This document shows positions 22,438 to 40,956 of a stretch of 64,000 bases of DNA, one piece after another (the stretch's first letter is position 1; each line of letters begins with the position of its first letter). A program made the translations under genes and the position numbers. Origin of the DNA: a virus; the IMG/VR virus record IMGVR_UViG_3300035703_000072, positions 1 through 64,000 of that record. One strand, 5' to 3'. The notes under the pieces were generated by a model that ran no database searches, was not told the DNA's origin, and saw only the letters and a program-made list of their open reading frames with translations.

Positions 22438-22544
22438 TGGAGAAGAGAGGACTCGAACCTCTGACGCATCTGATTAAGTTTAGATCTCCCCAAATAAAAA
22501 CTACACTACAATCAAACCGCTCTAACCAACTGAGCTACTTCCCC
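22438..22544 (-). tRNA. tRNA-like gene 1 with oversized anticodon hairpin (identity unresolved)
   Basis: On minus: acceptor GGGGAAG/CTTCTCC (one G-U pair), D arm GCTC/GAGC, variable GCGTC, T arm AGAGG-TTCGAGT-CCTCT, discriminator A. The anticodon stem GTTTG/CAGAT closes a 40-base loop instead of 7, and the pairing can extend by three bases inward (GTTTGATT/AATCAGAT). Total 107 bases, CCA not encoded. The body is almost identical to the element at 37350-37436. No anticodon can be assigned with confidence. It could be a tRNA with an insertion, or a tRNA mimic. Confidence 0.6.
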
Positions 22545-22682: not shown

Positions 22683-22697
22683 GAATATTTCTTTTTG

Positions 22698-22770
22698 TAG
22701 CAAGAGCGGGATTCGAACCCGTGACCTTCGGATTATGAGTCCGACGAGCTGCCGACTGCTCTATCTTGCG
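22698..22770 (-). tRNA. tRNA with CAU anticodon (Met or Ile2)
   Basis: 73 bases on minus. D arm GAGC/GCTC, anticodon stem TCGGA/TCCGA around CTCATAA (anticodon CAU), variable AGGTC, T loop TTCGAAT, discriminator A. The first acceptor pair is C-U and the outer T-stem pair is A-C, so it is slightly degenerate. It lacks the three G-C pairs of initiator anticodon stems, so elongator Met or, after lysidine modification, Ile2 is likely. Phage tRNAs of this kind can top up codon supply or replace cleaved host tRNAs. Confidence 0.85.
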
Positions 22771-25507: not shown

Positions 25508-25529
25508 AACCGCCCTTAATCGAGCGGTT
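25508..25529 (-). terminator. Terminator after DUF4942 methylase gene
   Basis: AACCGC (25508-25513) and GCGGTT (25524-25529) form a stem with a 10-base loop. On minus a TTTTTT run follows. It closes the transcript ending in the gene at 25561, directly before the next promoter. Confidence 0.75.
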
Positions 25530-25560: not shown

Positions 25561-26943
25561 CTATTTTTTATATTGATCATGTAAAACAAATCCTTTGAGT
25601 TCTCCGTAGGCTTTGTTGAGTAAGAACCAAGAATCATTTTCTTTGAATTTGACGTGCATAGTTCCTTTTTTGAAGAATTTAACGTCAAAAAACCCCCATT
25701 CATACCAAGTATTAGGTTCAATTTGAAACAATTTCTCGTGTTTTGAGTTGTAATTGAACCTGTAAAGACTTCCTATTGTGTTATAATCTCTTCCGGTGAT
25801 ATTGCAAAGCACTTTTACCAAATCATCAATCTTTCTAAGTCCGTAGGTGTCATATTTCACATTGAAGCCCATGTATGACATTGTTTCCATGATTCCCTCA
25901 ACGATAAACTTTTTGTTGAGCATGTGCCCGGAGTTGGTTTTCCATCCTTCAACACCGAATCGGTTCTCGTGGGTGTATTTTGTAAAGTTGTCAATGGCTT
26001 CTTCGAGTGCTCTGTTGAAAGTTTCTTTTCGGGTTCCGACAATGATTTCAAGCATTCGATAAATGTTTCGCATGGTAAAAGGAACTTTTTCTTGCGTTTC
26101 GACAAACTTATTGATGTCTTTCATCACTCCGGAAGTAACGTACTTCTCCATGTTCATTTTTTGGAATATGTATTTCCAAGATTGCTTTTGGAGAATTTTT
26201 GAAAACTGCTCCTTGCTTGTGATGTCCTTGTCGTGTCCGATTTGCAAGTTGATTGAAGACATGTTGATTTGGCCAATCATTAAATTAACGGATTCGATTT
26301 CGGCTTTCATTCGGTCAAACATCTTCATGGTTCCAACATAACGGTTAACGAGTGCACGTACTTCATTGTATTGCATGATGCCTTCGCCTTGGATTTCCTC
26401 TTCATCCTCTCCCATAAAAAATCCTTCAAACTCGAAATCCTGACTTTTGATAGGCTTGTGCAATCTGATCAGTCCAACCTCTACACCGGTGGTTCTTTCG
26501 GCATCGGAGAAACAATCCCCGAGATTTTCAGTTTGGCCGTAATCTGAAATGATGCTTCTAAGTCTTGGATATGGTCTTTCAATTGTTGAATAATTGCAAA
26601 GCGAAACTATTTCGCATCCATCGGGCGCGACTTCCCAAGCGTGTATGATGTGCTTTTCGGCGTTTGAGAAAGGCGGGTTCATGTAAATAGCATGAACGTG
26701 GCTGATTTGTTCCGGCTTGCATTCGAAGAAATTCTCGCCAATAAGCGTGGATTTTTGCTTTACGATTTGCTGTAGGTCTTTATTGATTTCCATGCTGAGT
26801 ACTTCTTTAGCTCCATTGGAAAGGCAATAATCAACTATGTTGCCTTTTCCGGCGTGAGGTTCAAGTATTACTCTGTTTTTACAATCCAAATTCATCATTT
26901 GGATTACTTCGGGTGGTGTCGGATAGAATTCTGAATGGAACAT
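25561..26943 (-). CDS. N6-adenine methyltransferase with DUF4942, 460 aa
   Basis: N-terminal methylase: FYPTPPEVIQMM, motif I VILEPHAGKGNIVDYCL (about residues 24-40) and motif IV YMNPPFSNAEKH (about 86-97), the NPPF form of adenine methylases. The C-terminal half (about 220-430; FTMRNIYRMLEIIVGTRKET, WKTNSGHMLNKKFIVEG) resembles DUF4942, often fused to such methylases on Bacteroidota mobile elements. No nuclease partner is adjacent. Together with the methylase at 23957 it gives the phage two modification enzymes. Confidence 0.85.
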   Translation of the reverse strand: MFHSEFYPTPPEVIQMMNLDCKNRVILEPHAGKGNIVDYCLSNGAKEVLSMEINKDLQQIVKQKSTLIGENFFECKPEQISHVHAIYMNPPFSNAEKHIIHAWEVAPDGCEIVSLCNYSTIERPYPRLRSIISDYGQTENLGDCFSDAERTTGVEVGLIRLHKPIKSQDFEFEGFFMGEDEEEIQGEGIMQYNEVRALVNRYVGTMKMFDRMKAEIESVNLMIGQINMSSINLQIGHDKDITSKEQFSKILQKQSWKYIFQKMNMEKYVTSGVMKDINKFVETQEKVPFTMRNIYRMLEIIVGTRKETFNRALEEAIDNFTKYTHENRFGVEGWKTNSGHMLNKKFIVEGIMETMSYMGFNVKYDTYGLRKIDDLVKVLCNITGRDYNTIGSLYRFNYNSKHEKLFQIEPNTWYEWGFFDVKFFKKGTMHVKFKENDSWFLLNKAYGELKGFVLHDQYKK

Positions 26944-26946
26944 AAA

Positions 26947-27021
26947 TTAGTGTTTACAGATTGTACAAATACCGTTTTTGAATAACTGAACGGTAAAACA
27001 GCGTTTGCAGTACTTGAACAT
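26947..27021 (-). CDS. 24-residue CxxC/CxxC microprotein, copy 1
   Basis: ATG at 27021, TAA at 26947-26949: a 24-residue protein starting MFKYCKRCFTVQLF and ending ICTICKH. It is packed between two genes with gaps of 2 and 3 bases. Two CxxC pairs could bind one zinc ion as a minimal zinc ribbon. A second gene at 28865-28939 encodes a clear paralogue (15 of 24 positions identical by eye). Conservation of the cysteines and frame argues strongly for translation. Function unknown. Confidence 0.65.
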   Translation of the reverse strand: MFKYCKRCFTVQLFKNGICTICKH

Positions 27022-27023
27022 GG

Positions 27024-27236
27024 TTAATTGATTTCTAATTCAAATCGGCCGTTGATGTCATAGGCCAATGTGTTAGTTATAATTTCTTCGAGCTCGTCAA
27101 TCATTTCCTCTTGCTCTTCAAATTCGTATGCTCCGGTTCTGACGTTCCATTCTGCATGGAAAGGAGATTGGTCTAATCTGAATTGGAAAATGTTTGCGTC
27201 GATGGTTGTTGATGGTGTGAATAATAAAGTTGCCAT
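27024..27236 (-). CDS. Small acidic protein, 70 aa
   Basis: Two bases before the microprotein gene. Beta-like first half (LLFTPSTTIDANIFQFRLDQ) and an acidic helix (EEQEEMIDELEEIITNTL). The 3' arm of an 8-bp hairpin (27237-27271) ends exactly at its ATG, so translation may be controlled by structure. No family recognised. Confidence 0.55.
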   Translation of the reverse strand: MATLLFTPSTTIDANIFQFRLDQSPFHAEWNVRTGAYEFEEQEEMIDELEEIITNTLAYDINGRFELEIN

Positions 27237-27271
27237 AATATTGCTTTTTGTGTTAAACCTTGAGCAATATT
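27237..27271 (-). promoter_or_regulatory. Hairpin abutting a start codon
   Basis: AATATTGC (27264-27271 read on minus) pairs with GCAATATT (27237-27244 on minus), with a 19-base loop. The 3' arm ends at the base before the ATG at 27236 and would mask the ribosome entry region. Confidence 0.4.
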
Positions 27272-27291
27272 GGGTTGACTCTTTGGAAGTA

Positions 27292-27519
27292 TCAAGGAAT
27301 AATCGAGATTATTTTGTCTGAATTATTAAAGCATTTCGATATAAATTCAGCATGTAGTAAAGCTTCTGACTTCTCTTTGGTGTCGATTATTTCATTACCG
27401 GTAACGTTATAAGGAATCCTTGCGATTTTAAATTTACCGGCTAAATCTGTTCCTACAATATTCCATGACGATTTTGATTGGGAATGTACTACTTTGGTTT
27501 TGATGTTTGGATTTTGCAT
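27292..27519 (-). CDS. Small protein, 75 aa
   Basis: Starts MQNPNIKTKVVHSQSKSSWN. The pattern VVHSQSKSSWNIVGTDLAGKF, then KIARIPYNV and LLHAEFISKCFN, reads as a small beta-beta-alpha fold as found in many phage early proteins of Bacteroidota. Four bases before the next gene upstream. Function unknown. Confidence 0.55.
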   Translation of the reverse strand: MQNPNIKTKVVHSQSKSSWNIVGTDLAGKFKIARIPYNVTGNEIIDTKEKSEALLHAEFISKCFNNSDKIISIIP

Positions 27520-27523
27520 GTTT

Positions 27524-27718
27524 TTAAAATAAGGTTAATTGTTGATTCTGTTTTTTTTGATAGTCATTTGTCTGCGCACACATATTGGCGGAATACTTCG
27601 AGGGTTCTGAGCAACCACCAAACCACATTTTTTTACAACTGTAAGCATTACCCCAATCTTCATGTGGCTTAATAATCAAATGAGCACATTTAAAGCATTT
27701 GATTTTTGATTTTTCCAT
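27524..27718 (-). CDS. Cys-rich small protein with C-terminal clamp-type peptide
   Basis: 64 residues. Cys at CFKCAH (about 8-11), then further Cys in SCKKMW, GGCSEP and NMCAQT suggest a zinc-bound fold. The last residues are QNQQLTLF, matching the bacterial sliding-clamp-binding pentapeptide QL(S/D)LF at the usual free C-terminus. The 75-residue protein encoded just upstream ends in the same QLTLF. I infer docking to the host beta clamp. Molecular role unknown. Confidence 0.6.
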   Translation of the reverse strand: MEKSKIKCFKCAHLIIKPHEDWGNAYSCKKMWFGGCSEPSKYSANMCAQTNDYQKKQNQQLTLF

Positions 27719-27719
27719 T

Positions 27720-27947
27720 TCAAAATAGTGTTAATTGAGGTTTTTCTTCTTTCACATTTTCCCACAGTTCCGGCCACATTTCCATGTATTTTTTCATGTA
27801 CTCAAGCGGTTGCTTTTCGACCATCAATAAGTCCGGGAAATTCTGTTTGAATTTGATTAGCGGAACTTCTACAGCATCGGGAGTAACACCGTATAGGATA
27901 TTACCTTTTCGGCTGTAGAAGTATAGGTTTTCAAGGTGTGGAATCAT
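27720..27947 (-). CDS. Small protein with C-terminal clamp-type peptide, 75 aa
   Basis: MIPHLENLYFYSRKGNILYG at the start, aromatic and helical, ending ENVKEEKPQLTLF. The terminal QLTLF is the consensus form of the beta-clamp-binding motif. The stop is one base before the next gene. The body shows no further domain I recognise. Confidence 0.6.
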   Translation of the reverse strand: MIPHLENLYFYSRKGNILYGVTPDAVEVPLIKFKQNFPDLLMVEKQPLEYMKKYMEMWPELWENVKEEKPQLTLF

Positions 27948-27957
27948 TGGCTAATTT

Positions 27958-28158
27958 TTATAACTCATCATCATTAATATCTTCTCTTTCATGTAGAATT
28001 TGCAAAAGCCTTTCAGGTTTTAAAATATAACCTGCTAACGCTTCATCAGTTCCAAATTTTCCGCAGTCCGAATAAAAATCTATTATTATTTTTCCGTCTT
28101 CAATCTTTATTTCGGCAGATACTTTTTGCTCTTCTTTTGGTTTGTATAGCAATCCCAT
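27958..28158 (-). CDS. Small acidic protein, 66 aa
   Basis: MGLLYKPKEEQKVSAEIKIE at the start, acidic tail (LHEREDINDDEL). Contains GKIIIDFYSDCGKFGTDEAL, a beta-hairpin-like stretch. Three bases after the ASCH gene, so part of the same transcript. No family recognised. Confidence 0.5.
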   Translation of the reverse strand: MGLLYKPKEEQKVSAEIKIEDGKIIIDFYSDCGKFGTDEALAGYILKPERLLQILHEREDINDDEL

Positions 28159-28161
28159 AAC

Positions 28162-28842
28162 TTAAAAGTTTTCCGGTTTTTCGATGCGTTCGAATTCGAT
28201 TACCCACACCCACGGATTTTCGTTCCAGGATTGTTCACCGTTGATAGACTTCCATAGTGTCATGAAAGAAGAACGAGCATCGGCACAACCAGAAGTATCG
28301 CCTTTATAATCTCGATACAGTAGTCTTGTTTGAAAGTTTTCTACCGGCAATTTAACATCTTTCAAAACTCCTTCACTTATTGCATCTTCCTCTGAAATAT
28401 CCTGAAGTCTTTCTACTCGGATATCTTTGATTTTAAGAAACAAACGGCAAGCTTCTTTTGGCATAAACAGAGAACTTCTTTTATACCAACCAAGAACTCT
28501 TTGACTATTTTTGAATATTGAAGACGGGGGATTATCATTGTATGCAATTGATGTATAGGCATTATCTGCTATAAATTTCCATTTTTGCTTACCTGTTTTA
28601 GTTAATCCGTTTTTTCTCCAAAAACCATATTGATAGAAGCTTTCTCTCACCCAAAGCACATCGCCAACTTCACCGTATGGGCATATAAAAGTATCAGGCC
28701 TTGTTAAAACATCAGGAGGTAACATGCCGGTAGTAATCCACTCAAGCGCTTTACCTTTAACAACTCTCCTTGTCTGTAATTTGGTTCCGTTTAAAATCGC
28801 CTGAACCATAGGCGTGCTGAATAAAATTGGTTTGAAATTCAT
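28162..28842 (-). CDS. ASCH-like domain protein, 226 aa
   Basis: The N-terminus KPILFSTPMVQAILNGTKLQ, followed by TRRVVKG, and the later CPYGEVGDVLWVRESFYQYG are the hallmark segments of phage ASCH-like proteins (a PUA-related fold thought to bind RNA or nucleotides). Length is normal for the phage group. It lies in the early/middle gene cluster. The role in the phage is unknown; RNA binding is an inference from the fold. Confidence 0.8.
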   Translation of the reverse strand: MNFKPILFSTPMVQAILNGTKLQTRRVVKGKALEWITTGMLPPDVLTRPDTFICPYGEVGDVLWVRESFYQYGFWRKNGLTKTGKQKWKFIADNAYTSIAYNDNPPSSIFKNSQRVLGWYKRSSLFMPKEACRLFLKIKDIRVERLQDISEEDAISEGVLKDVKLPVENFQTRLLYRDYKGDTSGCADARSSFMTLWKSINGEQSWNENPWVWVIEFERIEKPENF

Positions 28843-28864
28843 ATTGATTTGATTTATGGGTTAT

Positions 28865-28939
28865 TTATCTTTTACAAATTGTGCATTTGTCATCTCTGAA
28901 CAATTGCATCGAGAAACAGTGCTTGCAATACTTCCACAT
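28865..28939 (-). CDS. 24-residue CxxC/CxxC microprotein, copy 2
   Basis: ATG at 28939 overlaps the PcfJ stop by one base (TAATG); TAA at 28865-28867. Product: 24 residues, starting MWKYCKHCFSMQLF and ending KCTICKR. Cysteine spacing, length and the first and last blocks match the gene at 26947-27021. Translational coupling to PcfJ supports expression. A zinc-binding micro-ribbon is the simplest reading. Confidence 0.65.
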   Translation of the reverse strand: MWKYCKHCFSMQLFRDDKCTICKR

Positions 28940-30243
28940 TAGGCAGATTGTTTTTTAGGGTTACGTTTTTTCTTTGCTGAAGCTTTCCGAATTAATGGAA
29001 CGCTTTTCTTCATCAGTTCGAGAATTCTATCGTGATAATCAGTATTCGAGTTAAATTTTCCTCTGCACTGGATAACCTCCCAACTTTGAATGCTAAACTC
29101 AACTGTTTCTGTTCTCACTCCATTTACTCGGGCGGAAAAAAGCAATGAGTGTGTTTTGGTATAGTAATCGTTTGTGAACACGCAGTGCTTTAATTTCTTG
29201 CCCTCTTCCTTAAAATCATCAATATTCTGCAATGGTTTGATGGTTAATTCTCCATCGACAAACTCAAGATTCAAGAATCGTTTCATTCGCTCGATGTAAG
29301 CCATGTTCTTCTGTTTGATGTTGGCTTCTTTCTCCTGCTCTCTCTGTATTCTTCTCTTTTCAACTAAAGCATCATGAGCCGCATTCAAGTCCTCAGGACA
29401 AATGTATTTTGGATTGTGTAAGTCCTTCCCGAAATGGCTCAGCAAATTGAGGTAGTCATACCAAATACCAGGGTCTTTGATTTCGTACTTATGGCGCAGT
29501 GTTATTTTTATCTGTGGCCAATATCTTGAATGATCTGAATCTTTGTATAAGGCATGTTGCAAAATTTCTTTTTGCTTCGACTTGAGAAGCGTTTCAATCT
29601 TAGGAGACATCCTAACTTTTTCAATCAAACGTCTATAGTCGCAATCATGCTCAAAGCAGTCAAGGCTATACTTTTCAAACTGAGGTAGGAACTGAGCACC
29701 AGGACAATTGTAATCTGAAGCAAATCGGTCGTAATCGTTTCCTCTCCAACTTCTCGTATTCACATATCGTACTTCATAAGTTCCTCTGAATCCATCGCCA
29801 TAGAAACAAGGCAAAGCTCCAACAATTACTCTCTTATCTTTTTCATAATCTTTCCACTCTTCGAAAAGTCTATGGAACGAGTACTGAGGTTTCTTCTTCT
29901 TTGACATGTGCTTCCAACATGATAAGTAACGCATCACTTGGAATCGGCCAAATACTTCAGCTACGCCAAAAGTGATAATTCTTGTTGCCATGCCACCGTT
30001 CTCTGTAGCTACTTTTTTGAGCTGCCTTCCACATGAAGGACACTCTACTCCGGAAACTTCCTCTTGCCACATTTGCATTTCAGGTTTCCATTGGTGGTTA
30101 CATTCTAAACAGATGAAGTTCTTGTAATGGGTAGTAAAGTAAAACTCATGCTTTGATATGATGTAAGGCTCATGCTCTTTAGTTGGAAGAAGTCTTTGGT
30201 GCAAATCCCAAACCTCTATCTGTAACTTGGTTTTCGGTTTCAT
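28939..30243 (-). CDS. PcfJ-like protein
   Basis: 434 residues. A zinc-ribbon-like segment (ICLECNHQW...VECPSCGRQ, about residues 38-72) precedes a long central domain. The C-terminal third carries the PcfJ signature: GKKLKHCVFTNDYYTK, then LLFSARVNGVRTETVEFSIQ and QCRGKFN. It overlaps the PcfK gene by one base. PcfJ and PcfK are an obligate pair on conjugative plasmids and many Bacteroidota mobile elements; the molecular role in phages is not established. Confidence 0.8.
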   Translation of the reverse strand: MKPKTKLQIEVWDLHQRLLPTKEHEPYIISKHEFYFTTHYKNFICLECNHQWKPEMQMWQEEVSGVECPSCGRQLKKVATENGGMATRIITFGVAEVFGRFQVMRYLSCWKHMSKKKKPQYSFHRLFEEWKDYEKDKRVIVGALPCFYGDGFRGTYEVRYVNTRSWRGNDYDRFASDYNCPGAQFLPQFEKYSLDCFEHDCDYRRLIEKVRMSPKIETLLKSKQKEILQHALYKDSDHSRYWPQIKITLRHKYEIKDPGIWYDYLNLLSHFGKDLHNPKYICPEDLNAAHDALVEKRRIQREQEKEANIKQKNMAYIERMKRFLNLEFVDGELTIKPLQNIDDFKEEGKKLKHCVFTNDYYTKTHSLLFSARVNGVRTETVEFSIQSWEVIQCRGKFNSNTDYHDRILELMKKSVPLIRKASAKKKRNPKKQSA

Positions 30244-30761
30244 TATCCAAATAGTGTTGGTTGAACTTCTTCTTTCTGCTCCGGCTTAGCTTCAGTCTTT
30301 TTAGACTTTGCCGTCATCTTCTCGAGCGCTTGTGTAACAGCCAGCTCTTTGGCTTTTTGTTTAGCCTCTTCGATTTCTTCAGGAGAAAGAGTGATTTCAT
30401 TCTTGAGTTGCTCTTTGATCTCCGGAATGTATTTTGACTTCTCAGTTTCAAACAAAACCTTTTTGGCTTTCTCTTTTTCTTCTTCAGATAGTTCTACACC
30501 TCGGTTGATAATTACATTGGCGCTGATAGCTGCAACGTCTTTGATGTTGTCCTCGTCGTAGTAGTGTACAGCCCATCCAAATACTTCTTCATCTGAGTAT
30601 CCGGCACAGCCTCCATCCTTGGCGCACTTCAAAACATAGTTGCAGCATTCCTCAAGGCTCTTGTGTGGTTTTTGATAGTTGGCAGCGAACAGTTCATCTT
30701 CAGCTGCACGTTTGTCAAGGTAGTTTTTGATTGTTTCTTTGAAATGTTGTGATGATTTCAT
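30243..30761 (-). CDS. PcfK-like protein
   Basis: 172 residues, directly upstream of PcfJ. N-terminal PcfK pattern: HFKETIKNYLDKRAAEDELF, then CCNYVLKCAKDGGCAGYSDE and VFGWAVHYYDED. Acidic helical middle, Lys-rich linker, and a C-terminus VQPTLFG that resembles a clamp-binding peptide (QPTLF). The ATG follows a CCGAGCAA motif by one base. PcfK plus the clamp-type tail suggests a replication-linked function for the pair (inference). Confidence 0.8.
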   Translation of the reverse strand: MKSSQHFKETIKNYLDKRAAEDELFAANYQKPHKSLEECCNYVLKCAKDGGCAGYSDEEVFGWAVHYYDEDNIKDVAAISANVIINRGVELSEEEKEKAKKVLFETEKSKYIPEIKEQLKNEITLSPEEIEEAKQKAKELAVTQALEKMTAKSKKTEAKPEQKEEVQPTLFG

Positions 30762-37333: not shown

Positions 37334-37349
37334 ATCTACTTAGTTTTAG

Positions 37350-37436
37350 TGGAGAAGAGAGGACTCGAACCTATGACACCATCGCTACCACTTTTACAGA
37401 TAGCCAATGCGCTCTAACCAACTGAGCTACTTCTCC
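37350..37436 (-). tRNA. tRNA-like gene 2 with extended anticodon hairpin (possible GUA)
   Basis: On minus: perfect acceptor GGAGAAG/CTTCTCC, D arm GCTC/GAGC, variable GTGTC, T loop TTCGAGT, discriminator A. The anticodon stem CATTG/CGATG closes a 20-base loop that can pair further (GCTATC/GGTAGC). The apical region contains CTGTAAA, the usual loop of tRNA-Tyr(GUA), so a scanner may call Tyr. One T-stem pair is mismatched. 24 bases at the 3' end match tRNA-like gene 1. Standard function is uncertain. Confidence 0.6.
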
Positions 37437-40847: not shown

Positions 40848-40956
40848 GGTATTTTGTGTATTTTTGTTCGTATATATATGCAAATATACACACATTGTGC
40901 ATACCTGCAAACTTTTTGCACACTTTTTTACACTTTGTGCGTAAATTTTTTTCAAC
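40848..40956. promoter_or_regulatory. Lysogeny switch: divergent promoters and operators
   Basis: On minus, TTG (40908-40910) and TATATTTG (40881-40888) are separated by 19 bases, a full Bacteroidota promoter for the Cro-like gene. Operator-like repeats of TTGTGC/GCACAA occur at about 40894, 40917 and 40936 and TTTGTGTA near 40854. On plus only a near match TACACTTTG at about 40930 is seen for the repressor. Repressor and Cro presumably compete here. Confidence 0.65.

What the first reader, a model, noticed from the sequence alone, without database searches (positions are those of the whole stretch)
26947..28939. Pair of 24-residue zinc-ribbon-like microproteins
Genes at 26947-27021 and 28865-28939 encode 24-residue proteins with the pattern M-x-K-Y-C-K-x-C-F...Q-L-F...C-T-I-C-K. 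Both are squeezed between larger genes, one by a TAATG overlap. At 75 bases they fall below usual gene-calling limits. Two paralogues with retained cysteines argue for a functional, possibly undescribed family, perhaps acting on polymerase or ribosome like other tiny phage zinc proteins.
Basis: partly seen in the sequence, partly recalled or inferred. Interest (0 to 1): 0.65.

Follow-up and report, generated by a model that had tools for sequence, protein, structure and literature searches.

The report
Tiny phage zinc-ribbon protein family
Two overlooked 24-amino-acid genes in this phage belong to a real, previously unlisted family of miniature, probably zinc-binding proteins carried by unrelated viruses, those with a known or inferred host infecting mostly Bacteroidota bacteria; the family is genuine, but what it does is still unknown.

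Summary
Both 24-codon ORFs exist at the stated coordinates, on the minus strand: MFKYCKRCFTVQLFKNGICTICKH (27021→26947) and MWKYCKHCFSMQLFRDDKCTICKR (28939→28865). They are the only such ORFs in the window. They are real genes. I found homologues in Sphingomonas phage PAU, Chryseobacterium phage MA9V-3, about two dozen IMG/VR contigs and a Flavobacterium sasangense prophage; the two cultured-phage copies are unannotated. Across 34 loci (28 distinct DNA sequences, 25 distinct proteins) the four Cys (CX2C-X10-CX2C) and Lys3, Lys6 and Lys23 never vary. Substitutions are mostly synonymous (pN 0.18, pS 0.72). No Pfam, PHROGs or NCBIfam family covers them. AlphaFold gives a β-hairpin (pLDDT 82). The gene occurs in at least three unrelated phage contexts: siphophage-like phages (this window), Mu-like prophages and jumbo or large phages. 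It usually sits at or near the end of an early operon, and these groups share no convincing neighbouring gene. Copy 1 holds the ancestral position; copy 2 is seen only here. Most likely it is a minimal basic zinc ribbon that binds nucleic acid or conserved host machinery during early infection. Family status is well supported; function is inference.

The parts
26947..27021 (-). Microgene copy 1, MFKYCKRCFTVQLFKNGICTICKH (24 aa), CX2C-X10-CX2C
   Evidence: homologues; selection
28865..28939 (-). Microgene copy 2, MWKYCKHCFSMQLFRDDKCTICKR (24 aa); TAATG overlap with the upstream PcfJ-domain gene
   Evidence: second hit in the same record
27024..27236 (-). 70-aa gene (family F3) directly upstream of copy 1; upstream of the microgene in group A relatives as well
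25561..26943 (-). DNA methyltransferase with a DUF4942 domain, directly downstream of copy 1; same order apparent in L065
23957..25423 (-). ParB-like plus N6/N4 methyltransferase protein (family F0), conserved downstream neighbour in group A
   Evidence: domains found on the homologue in L013
28162..28842 (-). 226-aa gene downstream of copy 2 (phrog_874, unknown function)
28939..30243 (-). PcfJ-domain gene upstream of copy 2
   Evidence: PF14284, 4e-38
25508..25529 (-). Intrinsic terminator-like hairpin after the methyltransferase that follows copy 1; probable end of the early operon
40881..40911 (-). Exact match to the Bacteroidota promoter pattern TTTG-N19-TAnnTTTG upstream of the early region, divergent from a gene read as a repressor-like HTH gene (sequence start only)
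   Evidence: the only zero-mismatch match in the window, but the total number of matches is not above chance

Best explanation
The two ORFs are genuine genes of a conserved, uncatalogued phage microprotein family (24-28 residues as a rule). Each product probably folds as a minimal zinc ribbon: a beta hairpin whose two CX2C knuckles hold one metal ion. It is probably made late in the early operon and works alone, using its invariant lysines (K3, K6, K23, with K/R15 nearly so) to bind nucleic acid or a conserved part of the host gene-expression machinery (RNA polymerase or ribosome), and so helps the phage during the early-to-late switch. Shown: gene reality, family, selection, invariant Cys and Lys, genomic position. 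Supported by prediction: the fold. Inferred: metal binding, expression timing, target and effect.
For: Homologues with intact cysteines in PAU (77% identity, E=2e-5 with a family-branch query), MA9V-3, 23 IMG/VR loci, one Flavobacterium prophage and six further divergent members. 25 distinct proteins: all four Cys and K3, K6, K23 invariant. Mean pN 0.18 against pS 0.72; third codon positions change about twice as often as first or second. AlphaFold hairpin, mean pLDDT 82. Net charge +4 to +8 in four members. Groups A (siphophage-like), B (Mu-like; portal and Mu-F found by Pfam) and C (PAU, MA9V-3 and others) share no convincing neighbour within about 4-6 kb except the microgene (one weak link, F40), so the target is likely host-encoded or nucleic acid. 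In five group-B loci the stop codon abuts a hairpin plus T-run; in MA9V-3 such a hairpin follows the CX2C core and overlaps the 3' end of the open frame. Precedents: Haloferax one-domain zinc-finger micro-proteins (PMC10716476, PMC6562870) and TraR/lambda Orf73, small phage proteins that bind RNAP (PMC9239242), read here at abstract level.
Against: No experiment shows translation, metal binding or a target. Foldseek finds no significant match, as expected for 30 residues; PDB and Pfam sequence hits are partial or below cut-off. The model has pTM 0.35 and was run on a 30-residue version with an upstream in-frame start. Lys conservation could serve folding or a protein interface rather than nucleic acid. 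Position at the end of an early operon fits many accessory functions. Shared neighbours were sought only inside the fetched loci.
Confidence: 0.45

Rival explanations
1. Counter-defence or host-takeover accessory: the microprotein inhibits a host immune or metabolic enzyme and spreads between unrelated phages as a single-gene cassette.
For: Occurs in unrelated phage contexts with no convincing common neighbour; copy 2 in this phage lies at a position without a counterpart in relatives; the neighbourhood holds DNA methyltransferases.
Against: Very strong conservation, including lysines, across unrelated phages is unlike typical fast-evolving counter-defence proteins; position at or near the operon end is stable within each phage group. 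PADLOC was not scanned.
Confidence: 0.25
2. Small subunit or cofactor of a phage protein encoded by the same phage (methyltransferase, ParB-like protein, replication protein).
For: In group A it lies in a conserved order F3 - microgene - (methyltransferase or F18) - F0 - F1 - F2.
Against: Groups B and C mostly lack those neighbours, and even within group A the next gene varies (DUF4942 methyltransferase, F18, F0 or F60).
Confidence: 0.15
3. Regulatory leader ORF (attenuator): translation of a Lys/Cys-rich short ORF controls the next gene or the terminator.
For: In five group-B loci the stop codon is directly followed by an intrinsic-terminator-like hairpin.
Against: Cys spacing and non-Lys/Cys residues are conserved at the protein level with pN far below pS; no unusual RNA folding in six members (z -0.85 to 0.55); most group-A members have no terminator there and the next gene starts a few bases on; in group B the upstream gene often ends only 1-8 bp before the ORF.
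Confidence: 0.07
4. Chance or decayed ORFs without function.
For: Only 75 bases; no annotation of the ORF in the two cultured phages.
Against: Expected number by chance about zero; 25 distinct conserved proteins under purifying selection.
Confidence: 0.02

Closest known systems
One-domain zinc-finger micro-proteins of Haloferax volcanii (e.g. HVO_0758; PMC10716476, PMC6562870)
   Same: Stand-alone proteins under 70 aa built around two C(P)XCG-type knuckles for one zinc ion
   Different: Archaeal chromosomal proteins, longer, with P and G in the knuckles; no sequence relation shown. Ours are 24-28 aa as a rule, phage-borne, with K instead of P/G (C-K-x-C, C-T-I-C-K)
TraR / lambda Orf73 (small DksA homologues that bind RNA polymerase; PMC9239242)
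   Same: Small phage- or plasmid-borne proteins, with a zinc-binding Cys motif (own knowledge), that act on host transcription
   Different: TraR is 73 aa with a helical RNAP-binding part (the latter from own knowledge); no homology found here, and ours has no room for that part
Pfam zinc ribbons and RING halves (RecR_ZnF PF02132, zf-P11 PF03854, zf-C3HC4_3 PF13920, bL33 PF00471)
   Same: Paired CX2C knuckles at similar spacing
   Different: Matches partial; the hits shown for the window copies are below gathering score
Mu Com, bL36 and archaeal RpoP/Rpb12 (compared from own knowledge only)
   Same: Very small proteins with one zinc site acting on RNA, ribosome or polymerase
   Different: Longer; none appeared among the Pfam hits

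Membership tests
New phage microprotein family (consensus MFKYCKKCFxMxLFKNGKCTICKK) | CX2C-X10-CX2C with K3, K6, K23 | tested here: met
   both window copies and all 25 distinct proteins
New phage microprotein family (consensus MFKYCKKCFxMxLFKNGKCTICKK) | Stand-alone ORF, not a domain of a larger protein | tested here: met
   24-28 codons from start to stop in nearly all; MA9V-3 copy runs to 44 residues into a terminator-like hairpin
New phage microprotein family (consensus MFKYCKKCFxMxLFKNGKCTICKK) | Purifying selection on the protein | tested here: met
   pN 0.18 / pS 0.72
Zinc ribbon (fold class) | Two CX2C knuckles on a beta hairpin | tested here: met
   sequence and AlphaFold model with strands 6-11 and 16-21, pLDDT 82; Cys geometry not measured
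Zinc ribbon (fold class) | Binds Zn(II) | not testable with these tools
   needs ICP-MS or UV-vis titration
Any curated family of Pfam, PHROGs or NCBIfam | Convincing profile match (above the curated cut-off where there is one) | tested here: not met
DksA/TraR | Profile match to the family | tested here: not met
   no Pfam hit to the family even at E up to 10
Attenuator leader peptide | Conserved RNA structure over or after the ORF across members | tested here: not met
   no unusual folding of the ORF; terminator only in some contexts

The most novel reading that the evidence does not exclude
A 24-residue, metal-held mini-ribbon is among the smallest dedicated host-directed regulators encoded by phages: it docks as a single zinc knuckle pair on conserved Bacteroidota RNA polymerase or ribosome and has been exchanged between unrelated phage lineages because its target is universal among their hosts.
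Probability: 0.25. Interest if true: 0.68.

Novelty: new member of a known kind. Interest (0 to 1): 0.45.

Why it matters
Genes of 75 bases are below the limits of standard gene callers, and this one is missed even in isolated phages (PAU, MA9V-3). It is conserved across unrelated phages, at least some of which infect Bacteroidota, so it likely touches something common to those hosts. A synthetic 24-residue peptide makes the metal, fold and partner directly testable.

Tried and rejected
Chance ORF: rejected. RNA element or leader ORF: no folding signal and protein-level selection. Cellular origin: no full-length match at E<=1e-6 beyond F. sasangense in 400 family and 396 phylum genomes; looser hits are 13-18-residue partial matches, some with stops. 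No match in plasmids. Larrie, the closest cultured phage by its methyltransferase, has a 75-base gap before that gene but it holds no microORF. Weak tblastn hits in Staphylococcus and Mycobacterium phages (E 3-8) were judged chance. Foldseek and PDB sequence search gave nothing convincing. Conserved minus-strand 'F28' next to the microgene is only the antisense reading of the microgene itself. Fremin et al. 2022 (small phage genes catalogue) is not held, so I could not check whether the family is listed there.

Full report
What is there. Both ORFs lie on the minus strand at the stated coordinates. Copy 1 is MFKYCKRCFTVQLFKNGICTICKH (27021→26947), copy 2 MWKYCKHCFSMQLFRDDKCTICKR (28939→28865). 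Copy 1 has a 2-nt gap to the 70-aa gene before it and a 3-nt gap to a DUF4942 methyltransferase after it; copy 2 shares TAATG with a PcfJ-domain gene. The window is part of a 69.9-kb IMG/VR virus record, and these are the only two copies in it. No other ORF of the window has this architecture, and 40 random windows gave none.

Homologues. tblastn found unannotated copies in Sphingomonas phage PAU (219 kb; between gp234 and gp235, E=2e-5 with a branch consensus) and in Chryseobacterium phage MA9V-3. Profile-guided scans of IMG/VR gave 23 loci, and a scan of 84,980 species genomes gave one prophage in Flavobacterium sasangense. A DNA pattern scan added six more divergent members (L065, L069/L084, L072, L094, L096, L097). 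Carriage in sequenced host genomes is rare: F. sasangense itself is the only hit in 400 genomes of its family and 396 of its phylum at E<=1e-6.

Conservation and selection. Over 34 loci, 28 distinct DNA sequences and 25 distinct proteins, C5, C8, C19, C22, K3, K6 and K23 never vary; position 2 is F (22 of 25), W or I; position 4 is Y or F; M11, F14 and K/R15 are nearly constant. Among the first 22 distinct sequences mean pN is 0.18 and mean pS 0.72; between the two window copies pN is 0.18 and pS is saturated. Third codon positions change about twice as often as the others. The ORF shows no unusual RNA folding. The constraint is on the protein.

Fold. AlphaFold on a 30-residue version (L033, upstream in-frame start) with 19 rows gave pLDDT 82 and a hairpin with strands 6-11 and 16-21. 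This fits a minimal zinc ribbon. Metal binding was not tested. Foldseek against PDB and BFVD gave no significant match. Pfam, PHROGs and NCBIfam hold no family for it.

Context. Three kinds of surroundings were seen. Group A (this phage, L013, L016, L017, L021, L022, L023, L027, L033, L065, L096): as a rule a 70-aa gene F3, the microgene, a variable gene, then a ParB/methyltransferase protein and small genes, with terminase further on in several. L065 has F3 - microgene - an ORF beginning MFHS like the DUF4942 methyltransferase, as for copy 1. Group B (L014, L018, L019, L020/L036, L024, L025/L026/L028, L030): Mu-like prophages, identified by Portal_Mu and Phage_Mu_F, where the gene lies near the end of the early operon; in L024, L025, L026, L028 and L030 its stop codon abuts a terminator-like hairpin. 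Group C: PAU, MA9V-3, L031, L032, L034/L035 and others, with different neighbours. Within the fetched loci the first-pass groups share no gene family except the microgene and its antisense reading, plus one weak link (F40) between L021 and two Mu-like loci. L094, found later, carries an F0-like gene a few genes downstream.

Two copies. Copy 1 sits where related phages keep their single copy. Copy 2 has no counterpart; all other records examined have one copy (a second 8-residue hit in one record at E=0.02 is chance). Copy 1 is closest at DNA level to L016 (83%), copy 2 to L013 (77%). Old duplication and separate acquisition cannot be told apart with 66 bases.

Mechanism. Because phage groups without common neighbours keep not only the cysteines but also lysines, the partner is probably something that all their hosts provide: nucleic acid, RNA polymerase or ribosome. 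I prefer this (0.45 for the whole statement) over counter-defence (0.25), subunit of a phage protein (0.15) and leader ORF (0.07). Everything beyond the family, its selection and its predicted hairpin is inference.

Novelty. A previously uncatalogued protein family (in the libraries searched), but of a known kind: stand-alone mini zinc-finger proteins (PMC10716476, PMC6562870) and small phage proteins acting on host machinery (PMC9239242, PMC11323111). A catalogue of small phage genes exists that I could not read (Fremin et al. 2022).

Noticed in passing
window 27720-27947 (-), 27524-27718 (-), 30243-30761 (-); homologues in L017, L021, L027: Small proteins with C-terminal QLTLF / QLSLF (or QPTLFG) tails that match the known beta-clamp-binding motif (own knowledge); the tail is kept in the 71-82-aa F17 family, and relatives encode their own DnaN clamp (F13). 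Suggests a set of small clamp-binding phage proteins.
   Followed up: partly
L014:8963-10174 (-): Mu-F-like head protein whose C-terminus matches a CdiA_C (PF18451) domain: looks like a MuF-type polymorphic toxin in a Mu-like prophage.
   Followed up: no
L016:6080-6325, L017:6047-6325 (+): 81-92-aa Cys-rich protein (family F60) encoded directly after the microgene, several CX2C pairs; possibly a second zinc protein in the same cassette.
   Followed up: no
window 22697-22770, 37349-37436, 22438-22544 (-): Three tRNA-like genes, two called by ARAGORN (Met, and one with anticodon atc) and a third only by Rfam.
   Followed up: no
window 27524-27718 (-): 64-aa Cys-rich ORF between the two microgenes, no convincing family match; encoded on the same strand.
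   Followed up: no
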